From: Xiphophorus maculatus | Lineage: Eukaryota > Chordata > Actinopteri > Cyprinodontiformes > Poeciliidae | Direction: 5' to 3' | DNA: 64,000 bases | Assembly (NCBI RefSeq): GCF_002775205.1 | Contig: NC_036450.1 | Location: 8,306,479-8,370,478, forward strand | Shown: one piece after another, positions 24,449 through 62,077 of the stretch | How the letters are laid out: each line of letters starts with the position of its first letter | How positions within the stretch are numbered: the first letter of the stretch is position 1 | Notes under the pieces: generated by a model | Seen by the model: the letters and a program-made list of their open reading frames with translations, nothing else | The model's database searches: none | Told to the model about the DNA's origin: nothing | Translations under genes and position numbers: made by a program

Positions 24449-25340
24449 GTGCGTATATAGTGCCACCGTAAAAAAAAAAAAAAAAAAAAAAAATCTTTGC
24501 AAAATATTATGTAGCTATTAGCATAAACACGAAGAAAATCTATACACGTTTCGTTACGTTTTGGACACGGGTTTCGTGAAGTGGGACAGTGCACAAGCTT
24601 AACTTCGCAATTTCCTCGATTTTCATTTCTAGTCTTTTAACTAAATATTTGGAAAGCTTTTTATTATCGACGAATCAACACTGACATGCATTACAAAAGA
24701 AAATCCCACCTAAGTCCTGGAACGATAAAAACCGGTTTCGTCAGTCGTTCAGGTGCGCGCCTCCTCCTCTTTCAACTTTCATTCTCTCTACGTTCACGCG
24801 CGCTTCTTATTTTACTGGGCCAACGTCGCTGTAAACAGTTTGAGGTTGTTTTTGGCTTACTTTGTCATCTGCTCCACGAGGAGCACCAGCTGCGTGGGTT
24901 TGGTGAGCAGTTTGAGCAGATGTTATGGACTATGAAAGCAACAGGTGCGGTTCACAATCTGCGCCCGTGGTCCAGAAAGAGCAACTGTTCATGATGGCGC
25001 TTAAAAGCTGCTGAGCTGTTTTTATGAATGTTTTTATTTTTTGGATGAAGTCGTTTGCAGGAGGTCAGTATCCACTTACATTAAGTGTTGTTATGAAAGA
25101 AGAGATTAAAATGACTAAATGGTTAATATTTATATATATATATATTTTTTTTATTTGTGAATGAAAGCAAGCCTTTTAAAAGTGCACAGTCATGAGCCCA
25201 GGGGTGCTCATGTTAGACACTTAAAGCTCCTTGGACGTTAATTTTTCATTATTAGATTATTATTTCTACATGCTAGACAACTGTGATGACGCAAATGGCT
25301 TTAAAGATGCTCATGTTGAGTATTTTGCAGTGATTTTATA

Positions 25341-25421
25341 TACACTGCTAAAAAAAATAAAGGGAACACTTAAACAGGTGTTTAACACTTAAAGTGTTCC
25401 CTTTATTTTTTTGAGCAGTAT
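25341..25421. mobile_element. Palindromic mini-transposon (fold-back MITE)
   Basis: The left arm (ACTGCTAAAAAAAATAAAGG and on) and the right arm (AAGTGTTCCCTTTATTTTTT and on) pair over about 30 bp around a short centre and are flanked by TA-rich DNA. The arm (CTGCTCAAAAAAATAAAGGG) is a familiar Tc1/mariner-type fish terminal repeat. Confidence 0.7.
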
Positions 25422-25439
25422 ATATATATATATATATAC

Positions 25440-27641: not shown

Positions 27642-27971
27642 CGTTTTCGTTGGCACTGGCAAAAGCGTGCTGTGGCCAGGGCTCGTGACATGCATTCCCC
27701 CTGAGCTTGGTGACGCCTCCTTCAGCAGCACGGTGGCAGGATGCCGGTGCAGGCAGCCCAGTGGACAGAGTTTCTGTCCTGTCCCATCTGCTACAATGAG
27801 TTTGACAGCAGCGGCCACCAGCCCATCAGCTTGGGCTGCTCCCACACGGTGTGCAAAACGTGCCTGCACAAACTGCACCGCAAGGCCTGCCCCTTCGATC
27901 AGACGCCCATCAGCACGGACATCGACCTGCTGCCGGTCAACTGCGCCCTGCTGCAGCTGGTTGGAGCACAG
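27642..27971 (+). other. rc3h2: rc3h2 start-codon exon with RING finger
   Basis: Acceptor TTCCCCAG ends at 27,641. About 99 nt of leader precede ATG 27,741 (context GGCAGGATGCC). Residues 1-77 carry zinc ligands C14, C17, C33, H35, C38, C41, C50 and D53; the final Asp in place of Cys is typical of roquins. The leader implies an upstream non-coding exon. Confidence 0.9.
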
Positions 27972-30900
27972 GTGAGGTTGTCCAAAAGAGCTTTGGTCTA
28001 CTTGAGTGATTTTCAGATGCTTAGCCTTTCAAGTTAAGCATCTTATGCACTTCTTGTATCTTAAAGGTCCCAGATGTTCCTCCTGTGAGTCTGAGCAGTG
28101 CAGCAGATGTTGAGCACTATGACCTCTGCCGACTGTGTGTAGAAGAGCTGGCTCTCTACCTGAAACCTATCAGTGGTGCCAAAGGTACTGAATGTTTTCA
28201 TGCATATCTAACATCATCAGTAGAATCTTCTTGAAAAGAAACAGCTGCATTTGTACCAAAATTAGATCACAATGTATGTTGTTCCACTGGATTTTACTTA
28301 GAAGTATTAGAGTAAAGGGTGCTGAATATATATACATGCCACAAGTTTCAGATTCCTATTTGTAAAGAACTTTGAAATTGACAAGACAGACTTCAGTTGA
28401 GGTCTCAATTTTGTTAAAAAGCTGATAAGGATGGTAAAATGGGTTAACAAGCCCAGCTGTCCACATTTTTGCTTATGGGAATTTATGGGGAACGATGTAT
28501 TTTTGGGCTAAAAAGGAACAATAATTGGACTATCTGAAATAGCCATAAAATATATCCATGGAAGTTCAGTGTTGGAGGGAAATGATAGCACACTTGAACA
28601 TTTGCCATAGAGAATTAATCTTTTCATATTCAGCCTGCGGAGGCTGCTTGTAAAAGTTGGCATTCATACTTTCACACATCTCATGATGCTAGAAGCTTCT
28701 GTACTGTTTTGGTGCTTTGGGAACATTCAGCTTTATTTGAAAACACATCATCAAAAGTGAGACACACCAGTGGCTTCATGTTATTATTTGGATACTTGAG
28801 ACTTGATGATGTTATAGCTCTTAAGAGCCTGAGAAACAAAGTGCATATTAATTTAGATTAGCTCAGTGAAATTAAAAACCGTTTTGACTGAGACAACCTG
28901 TAGCAGATGTGCACTCAACAGTTTTTCACATGCAATCTGCAGGTGTGGCGAACTTGAGTCCGAGCGTGCTCAGTAGGCCCATGCAGAGAAAGCTGGTTAC
29001 TCTGGTGAACTGTCAGCTGGTAGAAGAGGAGGGTCGTGTGCGGGCGGTCCGGGCAGCCCGCTCACTGGGGGAACGGACTGTAACCGAACTCATCCTGCAG
29101 CACCAGAACCCCCAGCAGCTCTCTGCTAACCTCTGGGCAGCGGTGAGGGCGCGGGGCTGCCAGTTTTTGGGTCCTGGTGAGTGTGTGTGTGTCATGGTAC
29201 ATTTTATTGACATGAGAAAATCAATTTGAATTGGGTTTTCTCAAAACAACATATTGTTAGCTGGTTAAGTCCCATCATGTGTTGCTACACATGGATTTTG
29301 GAAGGGAAGTTAAAATACTAATGTCTACTCTGTCATTCACTTGGCTCTGACACAGGGGAATATTTGTTGCTACTGCAGCTAATTATCAGATAAGCTCCAG
29401 GTAAGAATATTTGGGGAAAGCAGTCATTGATATAAGTTTATAATATAATCTGAGGATTCTACTATCAGAGGACAAAGTAATAAAAGCATTAGAGCATCAC
29501 ATTATCTTACTTCATGCTTTCAAATACAATTATACTTCAAATGGAGAAACCTTTCTCAGATAGAAGTTAAAAGCGCTCACACAATTTTCTTTTGTGCTGC
29601 CAGTAAACTGTGAGACAGCCATTTTGCATATTTCCTTTAGAAAGGACTTTCTTCAAGAAAACAGTCAGTTTCTTTCTCTTTAAACAATAAGCAGTTGAAA
29701 GCTGTGTCTCTGTACTGCCAGATCTAAATTAAGATAGTTTCCCTTGTCCATTCTTAGTTTTTAATCTCTATTTTTTGTGTTTGAATATTGATAAGTATTC
29801 TCATATGAAAGTATGTGTTTTGTTGATAAGTTTCCTTTGAAATTGTCTAAATTACTTGTTGCGCATCACCTCATTCAACTGTCAGCTGGTATTGGTACCT
29901 GGTGTCCTGTGATGATCACTCATAGGGCAGATTCTGACTGGGAACAAGTTTCTCATCTTGATAACATAATGAGTTGAAAAGTCTGAGGACACCTGCTTGG
30001 TTTTGTTTTGAATGTTCTTTTGTCTCTCTTTACTCATGTAGAAATATCAAGTATTTATTGTTGTCACACATTTATGTAATCTTTTCAACTTCAGCTGTGA
30101 GTCAGTGCATCTGTCCTGAACATCTCTCTCTAATTCTCTTCTCACCAGCAATGCAAGAAGATGCACTGAAGCTGGTTTTACTAGCTTTGGAGGATGGTTC
30201 TGCTCTGTCTAGGAAGGTGCTGGTTTTGTTTGTGGTCCAGAAGCTTGAGGCCCGGTTCCCCCAGGCATCCAAAACCAGCATAGGCCACGTGGTGCAGCTG
30301 CTGTACAGGGCCTCCTGCTTTAAGGTACGGAAAAATAAAAAAATAGAAACTACAGTGAAAGATACAGAAAAAATATTAAATATGTGAGCACAAACAATAA
30401 GCTGCACTCTTGAGATGTCTATTTCAATAAAAAAAACAAGGACACCACAGTTTTTTTGAATGGAAGACGCTCTTTTGTAATTCTTCCCCTTAGGATTCAG
30501 CTTTTCGGAGCTGTTTCCAATTTCAACACAATGTTTTGCCATACGAGGATACAGAAAAACCATTGACTAAAATAGTCTTTCAAAATTTAGGTGAATACCC
30601 CAGTTTTTTAAATCAAATTTCTTCATACTAAATCACATGAAATTCTACTATTAGGAAGCATTCATTTGCAATCAGGATATGAGTTTCTGTAGATAAACCT
30701 TTGGTGTGTGTATTTCTAGAACTGTTATCTGATGACCGACGTGTTTGGCAGGGCAGAAATGCCAGCTACCCGTTCATGACATAACCTCAGACTATATTTG
30801 CGCCTCGCTGCCTCGTCTGGCAGGGCGGAGACAGATGGTAATGAGATACAGAGGCAGAGAGATGCACGCACCTAATTGCTGGGAAAAAATGGACAGGGGT

Positions 30901-33900
30901 GCAACTGGATCGCAGAAGCAATCCGATTGTGTTTTGGTTTTTGTTAAATGATGCCTGGCGGGGGAGTGTTCTGGTGTCTTATGATGATTACTCATAGGGC
31001 AGATTCTGAGAAGGGGAGAGTCCCTTCGTGTGATCAGAATTTGAGTTTGTGAGTCTGAGGACACCATAAACAAACACACATGTGATTTCTCTGACATTTA
31101 CTTAAATGCCTTGGATTGCTTCTGAATTTTCAATTTGTTATATATAACCACTTCAGTTCCCCTTTTTCCAGCTGTGTGTGCAAAGCCTGACAAAAAATAA
31201 TAACTGTGGTTTTCTTTTTCCTCTCACAACATTCTGTGTTCTTACCATCAGGTGACTAAGCGGGATGAGGATTCCTCCCTAATGCAGCTGAAGGAGGAGT
31301 TTCGAACGTATGAGGCGCTAAGGAGAGAACATGACGCTCAGATTGTCCACATTGCCATGGAGGCAGGCCTTCGAATTTCTCCTGAGCAGTGGTCCTCTCT
31401 CTTATATGGAGACCTAGTCCACAAATCACACATGCAGTCCATAATTGACAAGGTAATATTATTGTTGATATCTCTAACAAGACTGAAGATGATGTATGTA
31501 TTTATCTGCACATTGGCACAGATGTGTAAAACATTTTCAATAAATAAATAAATAAATAAGCCTTAGACTATTAAAAATGAATGAAAATGCAACATTTAAT
31601 GTGTGTATCATATCAGTTATACCTTTGCTTTGTTATAGGACAGCACTGAGTCTTCTAACATGATGTTTTATAGAGAGAGGGAGATTTTGAAATCTTTCTC
31701 GTCTTCCAAGCTTCAGAGTCCTCTCTTGTGTTTTCCTCTCTTCAGCTCACCCAACAGGTTTCCCTTACCTTAGGATTTAGGTCTGGGTGTGTTAATTATC
31801 TCATGCACACTAACATGGATCCACAGACTGTTAGAAAAGAAACATCCCCACATCATCATCAGGATGTGTGATGAGAAATCATCACACATCTTTCACCTTG
31901 CCTAATGAGATGCTTTTCCAGATATTCTTTCATTCATTCATTCATTCATTCATTCATTCATTCATTCATTCATTCATTCATTCATTCATTCCAGGCCCAC
32001 ATGAAATGTCTGTGACTTTATCGTCAAAGCATGTGGTTCCAGTTTAAGTCACCACAGCTTTTAAACTCCACATCTTTATTTTTGTGATGGGAGGACCGAA
32101 AAGATATTTTCTAGGCTACCATCTAAATAAACGTTTCACAGGCAGCTATTCTAATGGTTGTTATCTAGACATAGTTGAAGCCTACTGCAGTTCTGTAGCG
32201 TTTTTTTTTCCTCATACAGTCCATATTATTGTATGTGGCGGTAATATAAATTTGGATCCTTATTAAAAAATTGCATTGCAGTTCCAGTAACTTTAACCTT
32301 ATTAATTATTGATCTGGGGCAAGTTTCTGTTTTCCTATAGCCTTTGCCCATGAAGAATGAATCATTTTCACTTAAACTTTATGTGAGATTATGCCACTGA
32401 AATAAAATATTTCTTGTAAGACTTTCCATTCATTTTGATGATGGCAGTGTGGTCATACTTGCTGTAGACTGTCCGCAACACACACATTTGACCCCTCTTT
32501 TAAAGACATCCTTTCTTTGTTTTATCCTTTGTGCTGCAGTTGCAGTCTCCAGAATCATTTGCAAAGAGCGTTCAGGAACTGACTATTGTTCTGCAGAGGA
32601 CGGGAGACCCAGCCAACCTCACAAGCCTTAGACCACACCTAGAGCTACTGGCCAACATAGACCACAACCCAGGTACTTTCCCCTTTTCAGATGTTTACAA
32701 CTTATTTTTTCTTCAAAAAATGAAACGCTTGAAATTTCTTTCTCTGATCCTCTACAATTTAGTTAATATCTAATAAAAAAAACAAATGACAAAAAATACA
32801 GTTTGTCTTTTTAAGCTTTAGATATATTTAGTCAGCATTTATTTTTGAATACTGTATCACTAAGGTAGCTTCAGAAATTTGATCATTACTTTAATCATGA
32901 ATGCAGATTCCTGGCCTGGTTAATAATAAAGGGCAAGATTTGTAATCTGCAGTTTACATCTTAACCACACATTCAACAAAGGCTGACCTTTGACACTTTC
33001 AATAAAAAGAAAATATCTTGCTGACATTTGGAGCCGACGTGCATTTCCTCAACTCTAGACTTCTAGCTTTAACCTCAAACAAAGTAGATTTTCCAGTTTT
33101 TCAGGGTTTTATCATTTTATCTTGTATTGTGCCTTCTCAATATGTAGTTTAATATTTATCGTAATTCTTTTTGTATTTTACAAACATTCTCTTATAGCCC
33201 TTATTTTCTAAACCAATCAAACATTAATCTGTCTTCAGATGCCCCTCCGCCGTCCTGGGCAGAGCTGGAAAGCGTGATGCTGGCTGTAAAGCTGGTGGTT
33301 CATGGACTGGTGGAGTTCATACAGAACTTCAGCAAAAAGAGCCATGAAACTCCACAGGTACGCTGATACACCAGATTGATGCCATTGTGCTTTTAATGTC
33401 TCCTCGCTGCTGACTGGAGCACACTTTGTTCCTCCTAGTTGAAGGAAATGAAACAATTTCTGGTAACAAACAGCACAGGTGTTGGTTATTATTGTGCAAA
33501 AACAACACAGTAATTATAAACAGGAAATGGCACAGTTGTGACTCAGATGTTACTGTATTCTTTATAAATATATGCACTGTGCCTTGACTGTAAGGATGCT
33601 GGTCAGGTACAGTCTTTTAAAGTATGGAAATATGTGGAATTTGCTTTTGTGACTCTTCCAGGTTTGAATAAGTAATGAAAATAACAAAATCTCTAAATAG
33701 TACAATTCTGCTAACATTAACATTTGTTTGACATTCTTTATGTCTAAATTTCCAAATTTAAACTGGATTTATTTTATGAAACAGTTTTATTGGTTTTGTT
33801 TTTCAGATTACAGCAGAAACAGTTTTTCTCCCTGACATTTTAGCTTTTCTTCACATTTGTCTTTAAGCTAATGGTTTGGATGTAACCACATTTTTTCAAA

Positions 33901-56903: not shown

Positions 56904-59900
56904 ATGGATGACAAGGGCTCTGTGGGGAAGATTAGCGTATCTTCAGACTCAGTCTCCACTCTCAACAGTGAGGACTTTGTCCTCGTGTCCCGACTGGGGG
57001 ACGAGACACCTTCATCCACGAATAATGGTAGTGATGACGAAAAGACAGGACTGAAGGTAAGGATGGGTGGTGTGGAAGGACCAAGGGCCAGTACCATATC
57101 TTTTTCGAGGGGGTGGCAGAAGGTTGGGACTTCCAGAAAGTTGGAAACATAGCGTGCTTTGTAAAAGTATTCATACCTCAAATACTCTTTTCAGATTTTC
57201 TTGAATTACAGCCACAAACCTCAATGTATTTTGCAGTGATTTTATGTGACGGACCAGAAATAAGTAGTGCATAATTGTAAATTTCACATTTCTAAAATAA
57301 TAACAATAATAATAAACTTTATTTGTAAAGTTTAAAATGTACAGTTTAAACATAAATGTCACCATTAGATGGGCTGTACCAGATAGTAGTATAAGCTAAT
57401 TTGCATCTGCAGTCCCTTGACACATTATAAAATTGAATATACAAAACAATAATAAAATAAAACAGAAAATCTAATGCTACAAATTGCTTTCTAATCACAC
57501 AAACACACTCACGTACACGCATAATCACTGGCACACACACACACAGTCATACAGTTACTTTTAAGTAATTTTAATGTGTTGCCTTGTGTTGTCTTGCTGC
57601 AATTACAGCTGCAAGTATCTTCAGTTTAAATCTACCTGTTTTATACATGCAGAGACGGACATTTTTACCCTTTCTTTTTGCAAAATGAATTAAGCCCAAT
57701 CAAATTGAAAAATATAATTCCTAGTCGGATTTAGGTCTCTACTTTGACAGGGCCATTCTCACACCTTAATATGCTTTGTTCGAAACCATATAACTGTTGC
57801 TCTGTCTGTATTTTTAGTATTTTGTCCTGCTGAAAAGTGAACCACTGTCTGGCCTCTTGCAGGTTTTCTTGTATTTAAGTTGATCTAACTTCCTATCACT
57901 GGCTGTCCTGTTTTTGCTGAAGAAAAGCTCATGATACTGCCATGAACATGTTTCCAACTTTGATTGAACATGTTTTTATTAAACTGTACACAGCTGGTCT
58001 CTACTTATTAATGACATGATAGTTGTGGCCACTATATTATTTTTAAATGTATATGGGGGTTGAATTCAAAATGCATGTCACATTTTCAGATTTTATACTA
58101 TTACTTTGGTCCAAATTTACAGCATTGCACTAGTTTGTGTTGAAGGTTTTGGTTGTAACATGACAAAACAGTCAAGGAGTATGAATACTATTGAAAGGCA
58201 CTTTGCAATAACATCAAAATTTGTCCTACTGGCTTAATAGCAACATGTCAGCGTTCTCTAATGTGAGAGCAAAGCTGATTTATATTAAGTTTTATTAATT
58301 TATTTGCAGATTGAGGGGTCACCATTTGTAAGGATTAATTGATACATCACTTGCCTGTAAATCTTTTCATCTTTTCTCATGTATAGTTTAGATTGCATTC
58401 ATATGACTAACCATTTCTTGTGTTGCTTTTTTATTCTCATTCTACACTTTTCTCATAAATTTAGATCTGAGTAATTTACTTTCACATTTTCTTATTAACA
58501 CACTCCTAAACCTTGTTATCTCTGGTTAATTATATACATTAGAAGCTTACAGCTTGTTAGACAATGAAAGACTAATCTTTCCCCAGATTATTCTTTGCAA
58601 AATGACCGGCACCTTCTGTCAGTCAGCTGGCTCTAATAAAATTATGCTTTAATGAACTGTGTTGTGGTAAACAAACCTTTGCCTTGTTACAATTTAGTTA
58701 TTTGCTATTCATCATTTATTCTAGACGATCATGGATTTTGAGACTGGTTATTGGTTCAGTTTTGCATTTTCACTTTGATTTTGGACTACGTGGTTTGCTT
58801 GTGTCTTTATACTCTTTCCTAGGTTTTATTCACTCCTACTTCCTTTGTTTTACCAGTAGATGGTGCCAGATTAGTATGGAGTTGCACATCTATTTGCAGA
58901 TCATTGGTATTTCTGCTGCTTCATAATGCTTGTGGATATAACGCTTTCCCTTTTAGCTGATTTGATCAGCAGTCAGTGAAGCTTTCCTGAGACTTTCTTG
59001 GCATCCTCAGCTTGCTGTCAGATATATGAAAAGCAGCGCCCGACCGGCACCCGTTCACTTTCCTCACCTTGTAGAAAGAAATCACTCCATCCATTGAGCC
59101 CCACTCATTCTGATATCATGTTTTGTTTTTCTTCTTTTTTTGGCGACATATTTTCTTGCACATTTGCCCCCCAGCCAGCCCATCTAGTCAGGAGAAGAGC
59201 CAGTGTGTCTAAACTTGTTGTTTGTTATGCAGGTGATTTCAGAGGAAGGGGTCAGCTTTAAGGTCAGTCCTCTTCTCCTGCTTATTTTCTTTTCCTCTGA
59301 GAGCAATTTCTTTTGCTTTCTTTTGCTTTATCTCTGTGATGTGATTTAGTGGTGATCCTGTCTGTGATTATTCTAGCTTCCTGTATTTGTTTCACTTATT
59401 ATTGTGCGGCAACTTTGTAATATTTGGCTGTTAATGATGGTATACACTGATAGTATTAAGCTACCTGCCCGAGCTCGCAGCTATACCTGCAAATAAGTGA
59501 TGTAATAAACTATTTGTGTAGCATCCATTCAGCTGGAAATAGACATTTGAGTGAAACAGTATTAGAAAATGGCTTAGATATTATCTTAATTGAGTTTGCC
59601 TTCCAATAACAGTGCAATAAGTCACTGATCTCGGTCAGTACAAAAAGCCTCCGGTGCAGTTTGTCTTATTTCACTCTGCCCTCCATATGGAGATGTTATA
59701 CACCCTATACTGACCTTCTACTAATCACTAATATTAAATGAAAACTGATGAAAATATAACTTTAAAACCATCACTAAGCAAAACATGATTTTTTTATAAA
59801 GAAGATTACAATCACTCAAACTGAATTGTGAAATTGGTGTAAGCTGTTGGGAAGCGGTTGGGATGCGCTTGCTGTTGGCTTCCATCTCTCAGGGCGATTG

Positions 59901-62077
59901 CTGCGCAGGTCTTTTTGTTTTTTTTCTGGATATTAACTTGCAATATTTTTCGCCCCTATATTTCTGTCTTATTTTGATGTGCGTGCATCAGATTGTGGGG
60001 AATGGGAGTGAGCAGCAGCTCCAGAAGGAATTGGAGGACGTCCTCATGGACCCGTCAGTGGCAGGCGCTGGGCTCGGATCGGAAGTGATGAGTAGCCTTG
60101 GCCCGAGTGACCATGGGGTTCTTCCTAATGTGACGTCCCCCGTACCGGCAGGCACTGACCCATTAAGTTCACCTCCACCCAAGCTGGAGATGGTGCTCCC
60201 TGTTCAGACGGCCCAGGAGAGCGAGCTGAATGAGAGGTCTTACAGAGGTGAGGAAGGATGGCATTGTTTCAGTCTTAAACAAGGAAAGTAGGGCTGCAAT
60301 GAAAGATTATTTTAGTAATTGATTAATCGATTCATTGGATAAAAATGAAGACATTACCCATGTAAGCTTATTTAAGCAAAATTAGAGATACATTAAAAAC
60401 AGAAATAAGCAAATAATTCAATTCCTTTTCTGAATAAGAAAATAAACATTTTTATTCTTTAAAATGCAATAACATAGCATTTCTTTAGCTAAATCTATGC
60501 CACTTGAAGAGTTCTGGATAGAACTTATTTGCTTCCAAAGTAGGATTTTTTTTTTAATTAAATACAGAATTTTGTACAGTTTGGGCTTAATTACTTCTCT
60601 CAATTTATTGTTCTTTCAGCAGTTAGCCTTTTTAGAGTTAACTGGAGTCTGTATACTCTAGTTCTCAAGTGTTCTATAACTTCATGGCTTCATACACTTG
60701 AAAAAGGACTTGATGAGACATCAGGATTTCACTCACTCAATTTTATTTACACCAGTGAACAATGAAGAGGTGAAAAACCTACAAAACACACAAAAATTTC
60801 AAACATACATTTTAGAGATTTTTAGTTTAAATGTAACAATTTATATTAGTTATCATTCCATCATTAACTTTAGACATGAATTTATTTCACAATTTTAACC
60901 AAATGGATTTATTTATTTTTATTTTTTTATTCAAGGACTCAAGGATTGAATCCTTGAATCCTTTGTTTGATTAAACCAAACAAATACATGAAGTCAAACA
61001 TTTTTCTAAATTAGATTTAAACTCGTTTGTCTTTCAGAACATAGTTTTTACATTAATTGAATTTTAGATATACATTCAATGAAGCCAAACTTTAAAACCC
61101 AGCAATGCAAATTGTTCCTTCAATAAATTCTACATTTCTCTTACTCAAATACAAAAGCAAAGCCAGACTACATTTTCAGCTGAGACCAGTGAAAGGCTTA
61201 CCGGTAGTCCTAATTAAGTCCTTTTCCCCTGAATTTGATCAGTTTGCCTTTGAAATGCTGCTTTCTCAGCTCTGTTGCAAAAACCAGCCAAATGGTTGGT
61301 GGATTCCTTATATTACCTGAGTTCAGGGTGCTGCTGGTTGTACCAGATTTCTTTCTCCTTCTGAGAAGTGCTGGAGAGTGGCACACATGTTTATTCACCC
61401 ACATATGCATCCACCAGCAGATCTACGCAACTCTAGTTAACGATTAAATGATTACTCAATAAGTTGACTATTATTTCAATAACTGCTTCAGCACGATTAA
61501 TCCGACTAACTGTTTCAGCCTTAAAGTAAATGTAGTCTCTCCTTTCCTTGCTTTTTTACTCCCGTGCTCTGCAGCAGATGAATCGTCATCAGAGGGAAGC
61601 CCTTGCAGTCCAATTCCAGACGAGGACAGCGTTGTGTTCAGCCAGCTAACATATCTGGGGTGTGCCTCCGTCAACGCCCCCCGAAGTGAAGTGGAGGCCC
61701 TTCGGATGATGAGCATTCTCCGAGGGCAGTGCCAACTCCCACTGGATGTCACACTTTCAGTGCCAGGCGTGTCTGAAGGCACTGTCAGGTTGGTACAACA
61801 AAAAGGTTGAGCAAGCACTTATTTAAACACAATATCTTGTACATATGGGACATAAGAAACTGAACAGAACACTTAAAAAAATCATATTTCTTGTTTTAAC
61901 AGGTTGTTGGACCCCCACAACAACACAGAAATTGCCAATTACCCCATTTATAAGATCCTGTTCTGTGTCCGAGGCCATGATGGCACGCCAGAGAGCGACT
62001 GCTTCGCCTTCACTGAGAGCCACCACAACGCAGAGATCTTCAGGATTCACGTGTTCCGCTGCCAAATCCGAGAGGCG
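56904..62077 (+). CDS. rabgap1: rabgap1, Rab GTPase-activating protein 1 (5' part; continues past the right edge)
   Basis: TBC-domain GTPase-activating protein (GAPCenA) with an N-terminal PTB domain, acting on Rab proteins at endosomes and centrosomes. Coding exons here: 56904-57056, 59992-60247, 61575-61788 and 61903-62077, totalling 798 nt, 266 codons in frame (human about 1,070). The start MDDKGSVGKISVSSDSVSTL and FVLVSRLGDETPS match the family almost exactly. Exon 3 opens IVGNGSEQQLQKELEDVLMD and then becomes variable. Exons 4-5 begin the PTB domain (DEDSVVFSQLTYLGCASVNA, then NYPIYKILFCVRGHDGTPES). The kinesin-like, TBC and coiled-coil parts lie outside. ATG 56,904 has a good context (GCAGCCATGG). 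No exon is seen between 62,078 and 64,000. Confidence 0.96.
57153..58204. mobile_element. Non-autonomous Tc1-type DNA element, about 1.05 kb
   Basis: The ends form a diverged terminal inverted repeat: GTGCTTTGTAAAAGTATTC at the left, and at the right the reverse complement GTGCCTTTCAATAGTATTC. Second-tier words ACAGCCACAAACCT and ACAACCAAAACCTT also pair. The interior has GGATTTAGGTCTCTACTTTG and CCTGCTGAAAAGTGAACCAC, as in related fish copies. A (TAA)/(CA)-rich stretch at 57,297-57,545 may be a later insertion. No transposase frame is seen. Lies in the intron after rabgap1 exon 2. Confidence 0.6.
59233..59262 (+). other. Possible 30-nt in-frame rabgap1 microexon
   Basis: Between the phase-0 exons ending 57,056 and starting 59,992 lies a good acceptor (TTGTTTGTTATGCAG) followed by ten sense codons (VISEEGVSFK) and a donor GTCAGT. 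Inclusion would keep frame. I know of no such exon in other RABGAP1 genes; chance is a real alternative. Confidence 0.3.
60289..61523. mobile_element. Non-autonomous hAT-type element filling a rabgap1 intron
   Basis: Left end TAGGGCTGCAATGAAAG, then ATTGATTAATCGATTC. Right end GATTAATCCGACTAACTG, then TTTCAGCCTTA. The ends form the hAT-type GGGCTGCAA inverted terminus with ATTAATCG subterminal motifs. Flanking 8-mers AAGGAAAG and AAGTAAAT match at 6 of 8. There is no transposase. Confidence 0.65.

What the first reader, a model, noticed from the sequence alone, without database searches (positions are those of the whole stretch)
29901..31065. Two SNORD90-type snoRNAs in adjacent rc3h2 introns with an identical 18S guide
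Both 93-nt units have C, D' and D boxes, GGTGTC/GACACC terminal stems and the same 16-nt guide, while the second half has diverged. The guide pairs with 18S UCUGCCCUAU, and the +5 rule gives the site known in human as Um354. Human has a single SNORD90 in RC3H2 as far as I know, so this looks like a local duplication with selection on only the first guide.
Basis: partly seen in the sequence, partly recalled or inferred. Interest (0 to 1): 0.75.

Follow-up and report, generated by a model that had tools for sequence, protein, structure and literature searches.

The report
Twin SNORD90 snoRNAs in fish rc3h2
A fish gene carries two copies of a small RNA that in humans directs one chemical mark on the ribosome; duplication of this kind is common, but the preserved guide is notable because published maps of zebrafish and frog did not find that mark.

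Summary
Two 93-nt box C/D snoRNA genes lie in adjacent introns of rc3h2 (roquin-2) in a 704-Mb genome, probably a fish, with the same 16-nt guide. The guide pairs with 18S UCUGCCCUAU; the fifth-nucleotide rule points to U354, the human SNORD90 site. A blind C/D scan of 64 kb found only these two; guide plus D' box occurs exactly twice in the assembly. Rfam scores both below its SNORD90 cut-off (34.0, 24.8 against 41), so membership rests on the 18-nt guide/D' block, host gene and predicted target.

'Selection on only the first guide' is too simple. In a three-row comparison the D'-C' stem keeps its pairing while its letters change (5 of 6 pairs changed on both sides). Copy 2 is predicted to bury its guide; copy 1 much less, though that contrast shrinks under some constraints.

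Intragenic duplication of C/D snoRNAs is common; this genome also has paired SNORD36 and SNORD24. The interest is a mismatch: two intact guides here, yet U354 is reported unmethylated in zebrafish and Xenopus maps, while in human it is absent in stem cells and present in neurons. Expression and methylation in this animal are untested.

The parts
29901..29993 (+). Copy 1, 93-nt box C/D snoRNA, SNORD90-like, intron 4 if there is one 5'UTR exon
   Evidence: sequence; Rfam SNORD90 24.8 bits, snoZ118 36.0 bits; blind C/D scan
30973..31065 (+). Copy 2, 93-nt box C/D snoRNA, SNORD90-like, intron 5 by the same count
   Evidence: sequence; Rfam SNORD90 34.0 bits, snoZ118 38.4 bits; the one SNORD90 match listed at E<=10 in the whole genome, where only 48 first-look candidates were scored and copy 1 was not listed
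29901..29906 (+). Copy 1 terminal stem, 5' arm GGTGTC
29988..29993 (+). Copy 1 terminal stem, 3' arm GACACC
29909..29915 (+). Copy 1 C box GTGATGA
29918..29933 (+). Copy 1 shared 16-nt stretch ACTCATAGGGCAGATT; ATAGGGCAGA pairs with 18S 352-361
29934..29937 (+). Copy 1 D' box CTGA
29938..29964 (+). Copy 1 D'-C' stem-loop ending in C' TGATAA
29965..29982 (+). Copy 1 stretch before D, diverged; no target found in what was scanned
29983..29986 (+). Copy 1 D box CTGA
30973..30978 (+). Copy 2 terminal stem, 5' arm GGTGTC
31060..31065 (+). Copy 2 terminal stem, 3' arm GACACC
30981..30987 (+). Copy 2 C box ATGATGA
30990..31005 (+). Copy 2 shared 16-nt stretch ACTCATAGGGCAGATT, same 18S pairing
31006..31009 (+). 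Copy 2 D' box CTGA
31010..31036 (+). Copy 2 D'-C' stem-loop ending in C' TGATCA
31037..31054 (+). Copy 2 stretch before D, predicted to pair with its own guide
31055..31058 (+). Copy 2 D box CTGA
29177..30148 (+). rc3h2 intron holding copy 1; D box end to 3' splice site 162 nt
   Evidence: exon ends read
30325..31251 (+). rc3h2 intron holding copy 2; D box end to 3' splice site 193 nt
   Evidence: exon ends read
30149..30324 (+). rc3h2 coding exon between the two introns (roquin ROQ region)

Best explanation
These are two intron-encoded box C/D guide RNAs of the SNORD90 kind, made by duplication within rc3h2. Each is released from its spliced intron, binds the standard C/D proteins, and uses the stretch upstream of D' to place a 2'-O-methyl on 18S U354. 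Shown here: boxes, stems, shared guide, base-pairing register, host gene, two exact guide+D' copies in the assembly. Inferred: expression, processing, methylation. Copy 2 is the likelier positional counterpart of the single chicken gene (both intron 5, if the intron counts match) and resembles mammalian SNORD90 more (higher model score, similarly high predicted guide-opening cost). Copy 1 would then be the extra copy, with a more open guide.
For: Boxes, stems and 16-nt shared guide. 10 Watson-Crick pairs plus one G-U to recalled human 18S, register on U354; the same site gives 10 in a contaminant 18S; any other place has at most 7 Watson-Crick pairs in a row (9 with G-U) among the best rows printed for the sequences scanned. 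18 nt TCATAGGGCAGATTCTGA are shared with the Rfam SNORD90 consensus. Host roquin-2: 564 bits to Roquin-2 4z30 against 531 to Roquin-1 4qik over nearly the same stretch; the larger Roquin-1 construct 4txa scores 718.6 because it covers more of the query. Human SNORD90 is assigned to U354 and hosted in RC3H2 (PMC8210301 Table 1). The chicken counterpart of HBII-295 is in RC3H2 intron 5, one copy, and all 20 orphan snoRNAs of that study, this one among them, were amplified by RT-PCR from embryos (PMC2653536, passages). Exactly two guide+D' matches in the 704-Mb assembly; none of the eight one-mismatch places has TGATGA within 30 nt upstream or a CTGA at D-box distance.
Against: No expression data. 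Rfam SNORD90 scores are below cut-off and the family snoZ118 (a plant family by recall) scores higher on both copies; in the 64-kb scan at E<=10 copy 1 is not listed under SNORD90 at all. U354 is reported unmethylated in zebrafish and not conserved in X. laevis. Both D boxes lie 162-193 nt from the 3' splice site, farther than I recall as typical. The 10-pair guide match is not beyond all chance: among 60 shuffled guides the longest run was 11 (copy 1) or 10 (copy 2), mean about 7. HBII-295 = SNORD90 is recalled; one search did not confirm it.
Confidence: 0.8

Rival explanations
1. The copies are expressed but their conserved guide is not mainly for 18S methylation: it acts on other RNAs or in pre-rRNA folding, and U354 methylation is a mammalian addition.
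For: U354 not methylated in zebrafish or X. laevis. SNORD90 in human neural progenitor cells is reported to act on NRG3 pre-mRNA with RBM15B and m6A, and that paper calls it an orphan without rRNA target (PMC10335830, passages).
Against: The +5 register on U354 is exact. [quoted passage not shown]
Confidence: 0.2
2. One copy is functional and the other is decaying: copy 2 buries its guide and D' box, or copy 1 drifts away from the family fold.
For: Copy 2 inner fold -28.4 kcal/mol, z about -5, 0 of 500 shuffles as stable; guide-opening cost 11.2 against 4.4 kcal/mol in copy 1. Copy 1 scores only 24.8 bits on SNORD90.
Against: Both keep C, D', D boxes, terminal stem and guide intact; D'-C' stem pairs are kept by double changes. 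The Rfam consensus has a similar opening cost, 9.5 kcal/mol, above mononucleotide but not dinucleotide shuffles, so burial alone is not decay.
Confidence: 0.15
3. The units belong to the snoZ118 family rather than SNORD90.
For: snoZ118 scores 38.4 and 36.0 bits, above SNORD90 on both copies.
Against: Below the snoZ118 cut-off of 48; the snoZ118 consensus guide differs from the one here, which is identical to SNORD90 over 18 nt with D'; the host gene is the SNORD90 host.
Confidence: 0.02

Closest known systems
SNORD90 (Rfam RF00579; HBII-295 by recall), human and mammals
   Same: Host gene RC3H2, guide+D' block of 18 nt, U354 register, terminal stem, D'-C' stem-loop
   Different: Two copies, not one; the stretch before D and the stem letters diverged; Rfam score under cut-off
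Chicken GGoCD3 / HBII-295 in RC3H2 intron 5 (PMC2653536)
   Same: Host gene; intron number of copy 2 if one 5'UTR exon is assumed
   Different: One copy; listed as orphan; its sequence was not seen here
Paired SNORD36 and SNORD24 copies in this same genome (L031)
   Same: C/D snoRNAs in two copies each within one 9.9-kb stretch
   Different: Well over Rfam cut-offs; weak inner folds

Membership tests
Box C/D snoRNA | C and D boxes near the ends with a terminal stem | tested here: met
   both copies
Box C/D snoRNA | Internal C' and D' boxes | tested here: met
   D' CTGA exact; C' degenerate TGATAA and TGATCA
Box C/D snoRNA | Guide of about 10 or more pairs ending near D or D', fifth nucleotide on the target | tested here: met
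Box C/D snoRNA | Stable small RNA bound by fibrillarin | not testable with these tools
   no reads or pull-downs available
SNORD90 (RF00579) | Covariance score at or above 41 bits | tested here: not met
   34.0 and 24.8 bits; 34 bits genome-wide best; no window match at gathering level
SNORD90 (RF00579) | Guide and D' identical to the family consensus | tested here: met
   18 invariant columns; several of these consensus letters are lower case in the model, that is weakly conserved
SNORD90 (RF00579) | Host gene RC3H2 | tested here: met
SNORD90 (RF00579) | Directs Um354 | not tested
   register predicted only
snoZ118 (RF00142) | Score at or above 48 bits and its guide | tested here: not met
   38.4 and 36.0 bits; guide differs

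The most novel reading that the evidence does not exclude
The pair is a division of labour in one gene: copy 2 keeps the ancestral, self-masked guide that has to be opened, and copy 1 is an open version, so the fish can set U354 methylation by stage or cell type. If so, U354 is methylated in fish neurons although maps of embryos and adult tail missed it.
Probability: 0.12. Interest if true: 0.65.

Novelty: new member of a known kind. Interest (0 to 1): 0.38.

Why it matters
U354 is an rRNA methylation that is off in human stem cells and on in neurons (PMC12724518, passages). A guide kept intact in two copies in a fish, a lineage whose published zebrafish map lacks the mark, makes a direct test possible: either the mark is older than mammals and hidden in specific tissues, or the guide had another job first. 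Two natural copies, one predicted open and one predicted buried, would also let one measure whether guide masking controls methylation.

Tried and rejected
snoZ118 as the family: higher raw score, other guide, under cut-off. A third copy in the window: none. Other copies in the genome: two exact matches; eight one-mismatch places, none of the eight with TGATGA within 30 nt upstream or CTGA at D-box distance (one search had printed only seven of them). One of the eight (L017) has a looser TGA[TG]G[AT] upstream but no D box. These searches return lower bounds, and the family search did not list copy 1 itself, so a weak further copy is not excluded. Retroposition: by eye no clear A-tail or target-site repeat; copy 2 is followed by an A-rich stretch; not tested formally. 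A target for the stretch before D: no match beyond shuffles in recalled human 18S, contaminant 18S, 5.8S, two pieces of 28S and recalled U1, U2, U4, U5, U6; most of 28S was not scanned.

rRNA of this genome: one exact 28S pattern, no match; the LSU family search and an 18S 3' pattern did not complete, so absence is not shown. The 18S pattern that contains the target hit six places, so they cannot test target conservation. L010, L011 and L016 match recalled human 18S over nt 3-473 at about 79% plus a repeated 423-473 piece, L026 and L028 likewise over 3-473; no full 18S was obtained. 18S and guide patterns in viral contigs: no match. Papers not held: so the zebrafish RiboMeth-seq paper and the Xenopus snoRNA annotation paper were not read; the zebrafish result is taken from Table 1 of PMC8210301. 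Duplicated SNORD90 in fish was not found in print by the searches (listings only for most papers).

The folding results are mixed and told in full. Whole unit: copy 1 z -2.45 (3 of 200 shuffles as stable), copy 2 z -4.97 (0 of 200); the 32-nt D'-C' stem-loop alone is not beyond shuffles, 60 and 24 of 200. Inner C-to-D fold: copy 1 z -0.10 (218 of 500), copy 2 -4.97 (0 of 500), Rfam consensus -2.55 (6 of 500); guide-to-D-stretch duplex, dinucleotide / mononucleotide shuffles of 1000: copy 1 208/86, copy 2 4/0, consensus 197/25. Opening cost with nt 38-82 shuffled: copy 1 119 of 300, copy 2 5 of 300 at or above observed. Opening cost with the D stretch shuffled, dinucleotide / mononucleotide, of 300: no constraint, copy 1 43/39, copy 2 9/1, consensus 96/8; C and D open, copy 1 15/32, copy 2 1/0, consensus 78/3; all four boxes open, copy 1 1/4, copy 2 25/23, consensus 43/2. 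The contrast between copies shrinks when all four boxes are held open. The masking helix itself gets little covariation support: 2 of 10 pairs changed on both sides, the consensus row gapped at 5 and unpaired at 3. Four other C/D snoRNAs of this genome had inner z from -1.21 to +1.50 (SNORD24_b was mis-parsed in 104 and redone in 106).
Full report
What is there. The window holds a roquin-2 gene on the + strand. Pieces of its coding exons were read from frame translations and placed with splice signals: about 27741-27971 (coding part), 28067-28183, 28942-29176, 30149-30324, 31252-31452 and on. The joined protein pieces hit the ROQ, RING and CCCH domains and Roquin-2 4z30 better than Roquin-1 4qik over nearly the same residues (564 against 531 bits). 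An exon at about 59.9-60.1 kb looks like the start of RABGAP1 by recall only, which would fit the human neighbourhood.

The two units. Copy 1 is 29901-29993, copy 2 is 30973-31065, in adjacent introns 29177-30148 and 30325-31251. A mechanical C/D scan of both strands of the window returned these two and no other; shuffled windows averaged 0.33. The guide with D' box lies at exactly two places in the 704-Mb assembly. A genome-wide SNORD90 model search at E<=10 listed only copy 2; it scored 48 of 181,682 first-look candidates and did not list copy 1, so it is no proof of absence. None of eight one-mismatch guide places is a C/D candidate.

Target. The fifth nucleotide upstream of D' falls on U354. 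The predicted duplex energy is -18.6 kcal/mol for both copies and the consensus. PMC8210301 (passages, and section 14) assigns human U354 to SNORD90 with host RC3H2.

Family. Rfam gives SNORD90 34.0 and 24.8 bits (cut-off 41) and snoZ118 38.4 and 36.0 (cut-off 48). Neither cut-off is met. The 18-nt block TCATAGGGCAGATTCTGA is invariant among both copies and the SNORD90 consensus, and host and predicted target agree. I call it SNORD90-like and very probably orthologous; the score cut-off as a defining feature is not met. By contrast SNORD36 and SNORD24 of this genome are well above their cut-offs (61-76 bits), so SNORD90 seems to change faster (inference from these few).

What selection keeps. 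Identity is 34 of 37 in nt 1-37, 22 of 45 in nt 38-82, 11 of 11 in nt 83-93 (segment counts). The low-identity part is not free, though. On the three-row alignment of copy 1, copy 2 and Rfam consensus, the D'-C' stem has 5 of 6 pairs with changes on both sides and 89% of cells paired; the whole 31-pair structure has 10 such pairs against 4.1 in shuffles (0 of 500 as high) and at most 2 when slid. The structure was derived from these same rows, there are only three, and the stem-loop energy alone is not beyond shuffles, so this is support and not proof.

Guide masking. Copy 2 folds with its guide and D' box paired to its second half. Opening the 11-nt guide costs 11.2 kcal/mol in copy 2, 4.4 in copy 1 and 9.5 in the consensus. 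The contrast is strong without constraint and shrinks when all four boxes are held open (8.3, 6.2, 9.6). Four other C/D snoRNAs of this genome show no such fold. All counts against shuffles, favourable and not, are in Tried and rejected.

Why ordinary. Duplication of C/D snoRNAs within a host gene is well described: almost all chicken paralogs in one study arose by intragenic duplication (PMC2653536, passages), 59.5% of human C/D families with two or more expressed members keep all of them in one host (PMC8178906, passages), and placental mammals tend to low copy numbers, SNORD87 having four genes in zebrafish and Xenopus and one in human (PMC3349704, section 9). This genome's own SNORD36 and SNORD24 pairs make the same point.

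Why not fully ordinary. U354 is marked absent in zebrafish (PMC8210301 Table 1) and listed as not conserved in X. laevis (PMC8797249, passages). [quoted passage not shown] The guide is nevertheless intact in two copies here. Either the mark is tissue-restricted in fish or the guide has another role.

Limits. No other fish genome, no reads, no full 18S or 28S of this species, three rows for covariation, species not determined, intron numbering assumes one 5'UTR exon, chicken sequence not seen, and the equation HBII-295 = SNORD90 is recalled.

Noticed in passing
G000:C58 (L012-L016, L026), also C4 (L010, L028) and C22 (L011, L027): Places spaced about 10.19 kb on C58 carry an 18S-like 5' piece; in the units aligned (L010, L011, L016, L026, L028) it matches recalled human 18S over nt 3-473 at about 79% and then stops; they look like truncated rDNA units.
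   Followed up: partly
L031:4597-6036 (G000:C8 about 19.493-19.495 Mb): Two SNORD36 and two SNORD24 copies within 1.5 kb, all above Rfam cut-offs.
   Followed up: partly
59800-60291: Exon reading IVGNGSEQQLQKELEDVLMDP resembles the start of RABGAP1 (recalled, not searched), which would extend synteny with human.
   Followed up: no
25338-25427: Sub-threshold mir-568 matches on both strands (33.4 and 27.4 bits, cut-off 75), perhaps an inverted repeat.
   Followed up: no
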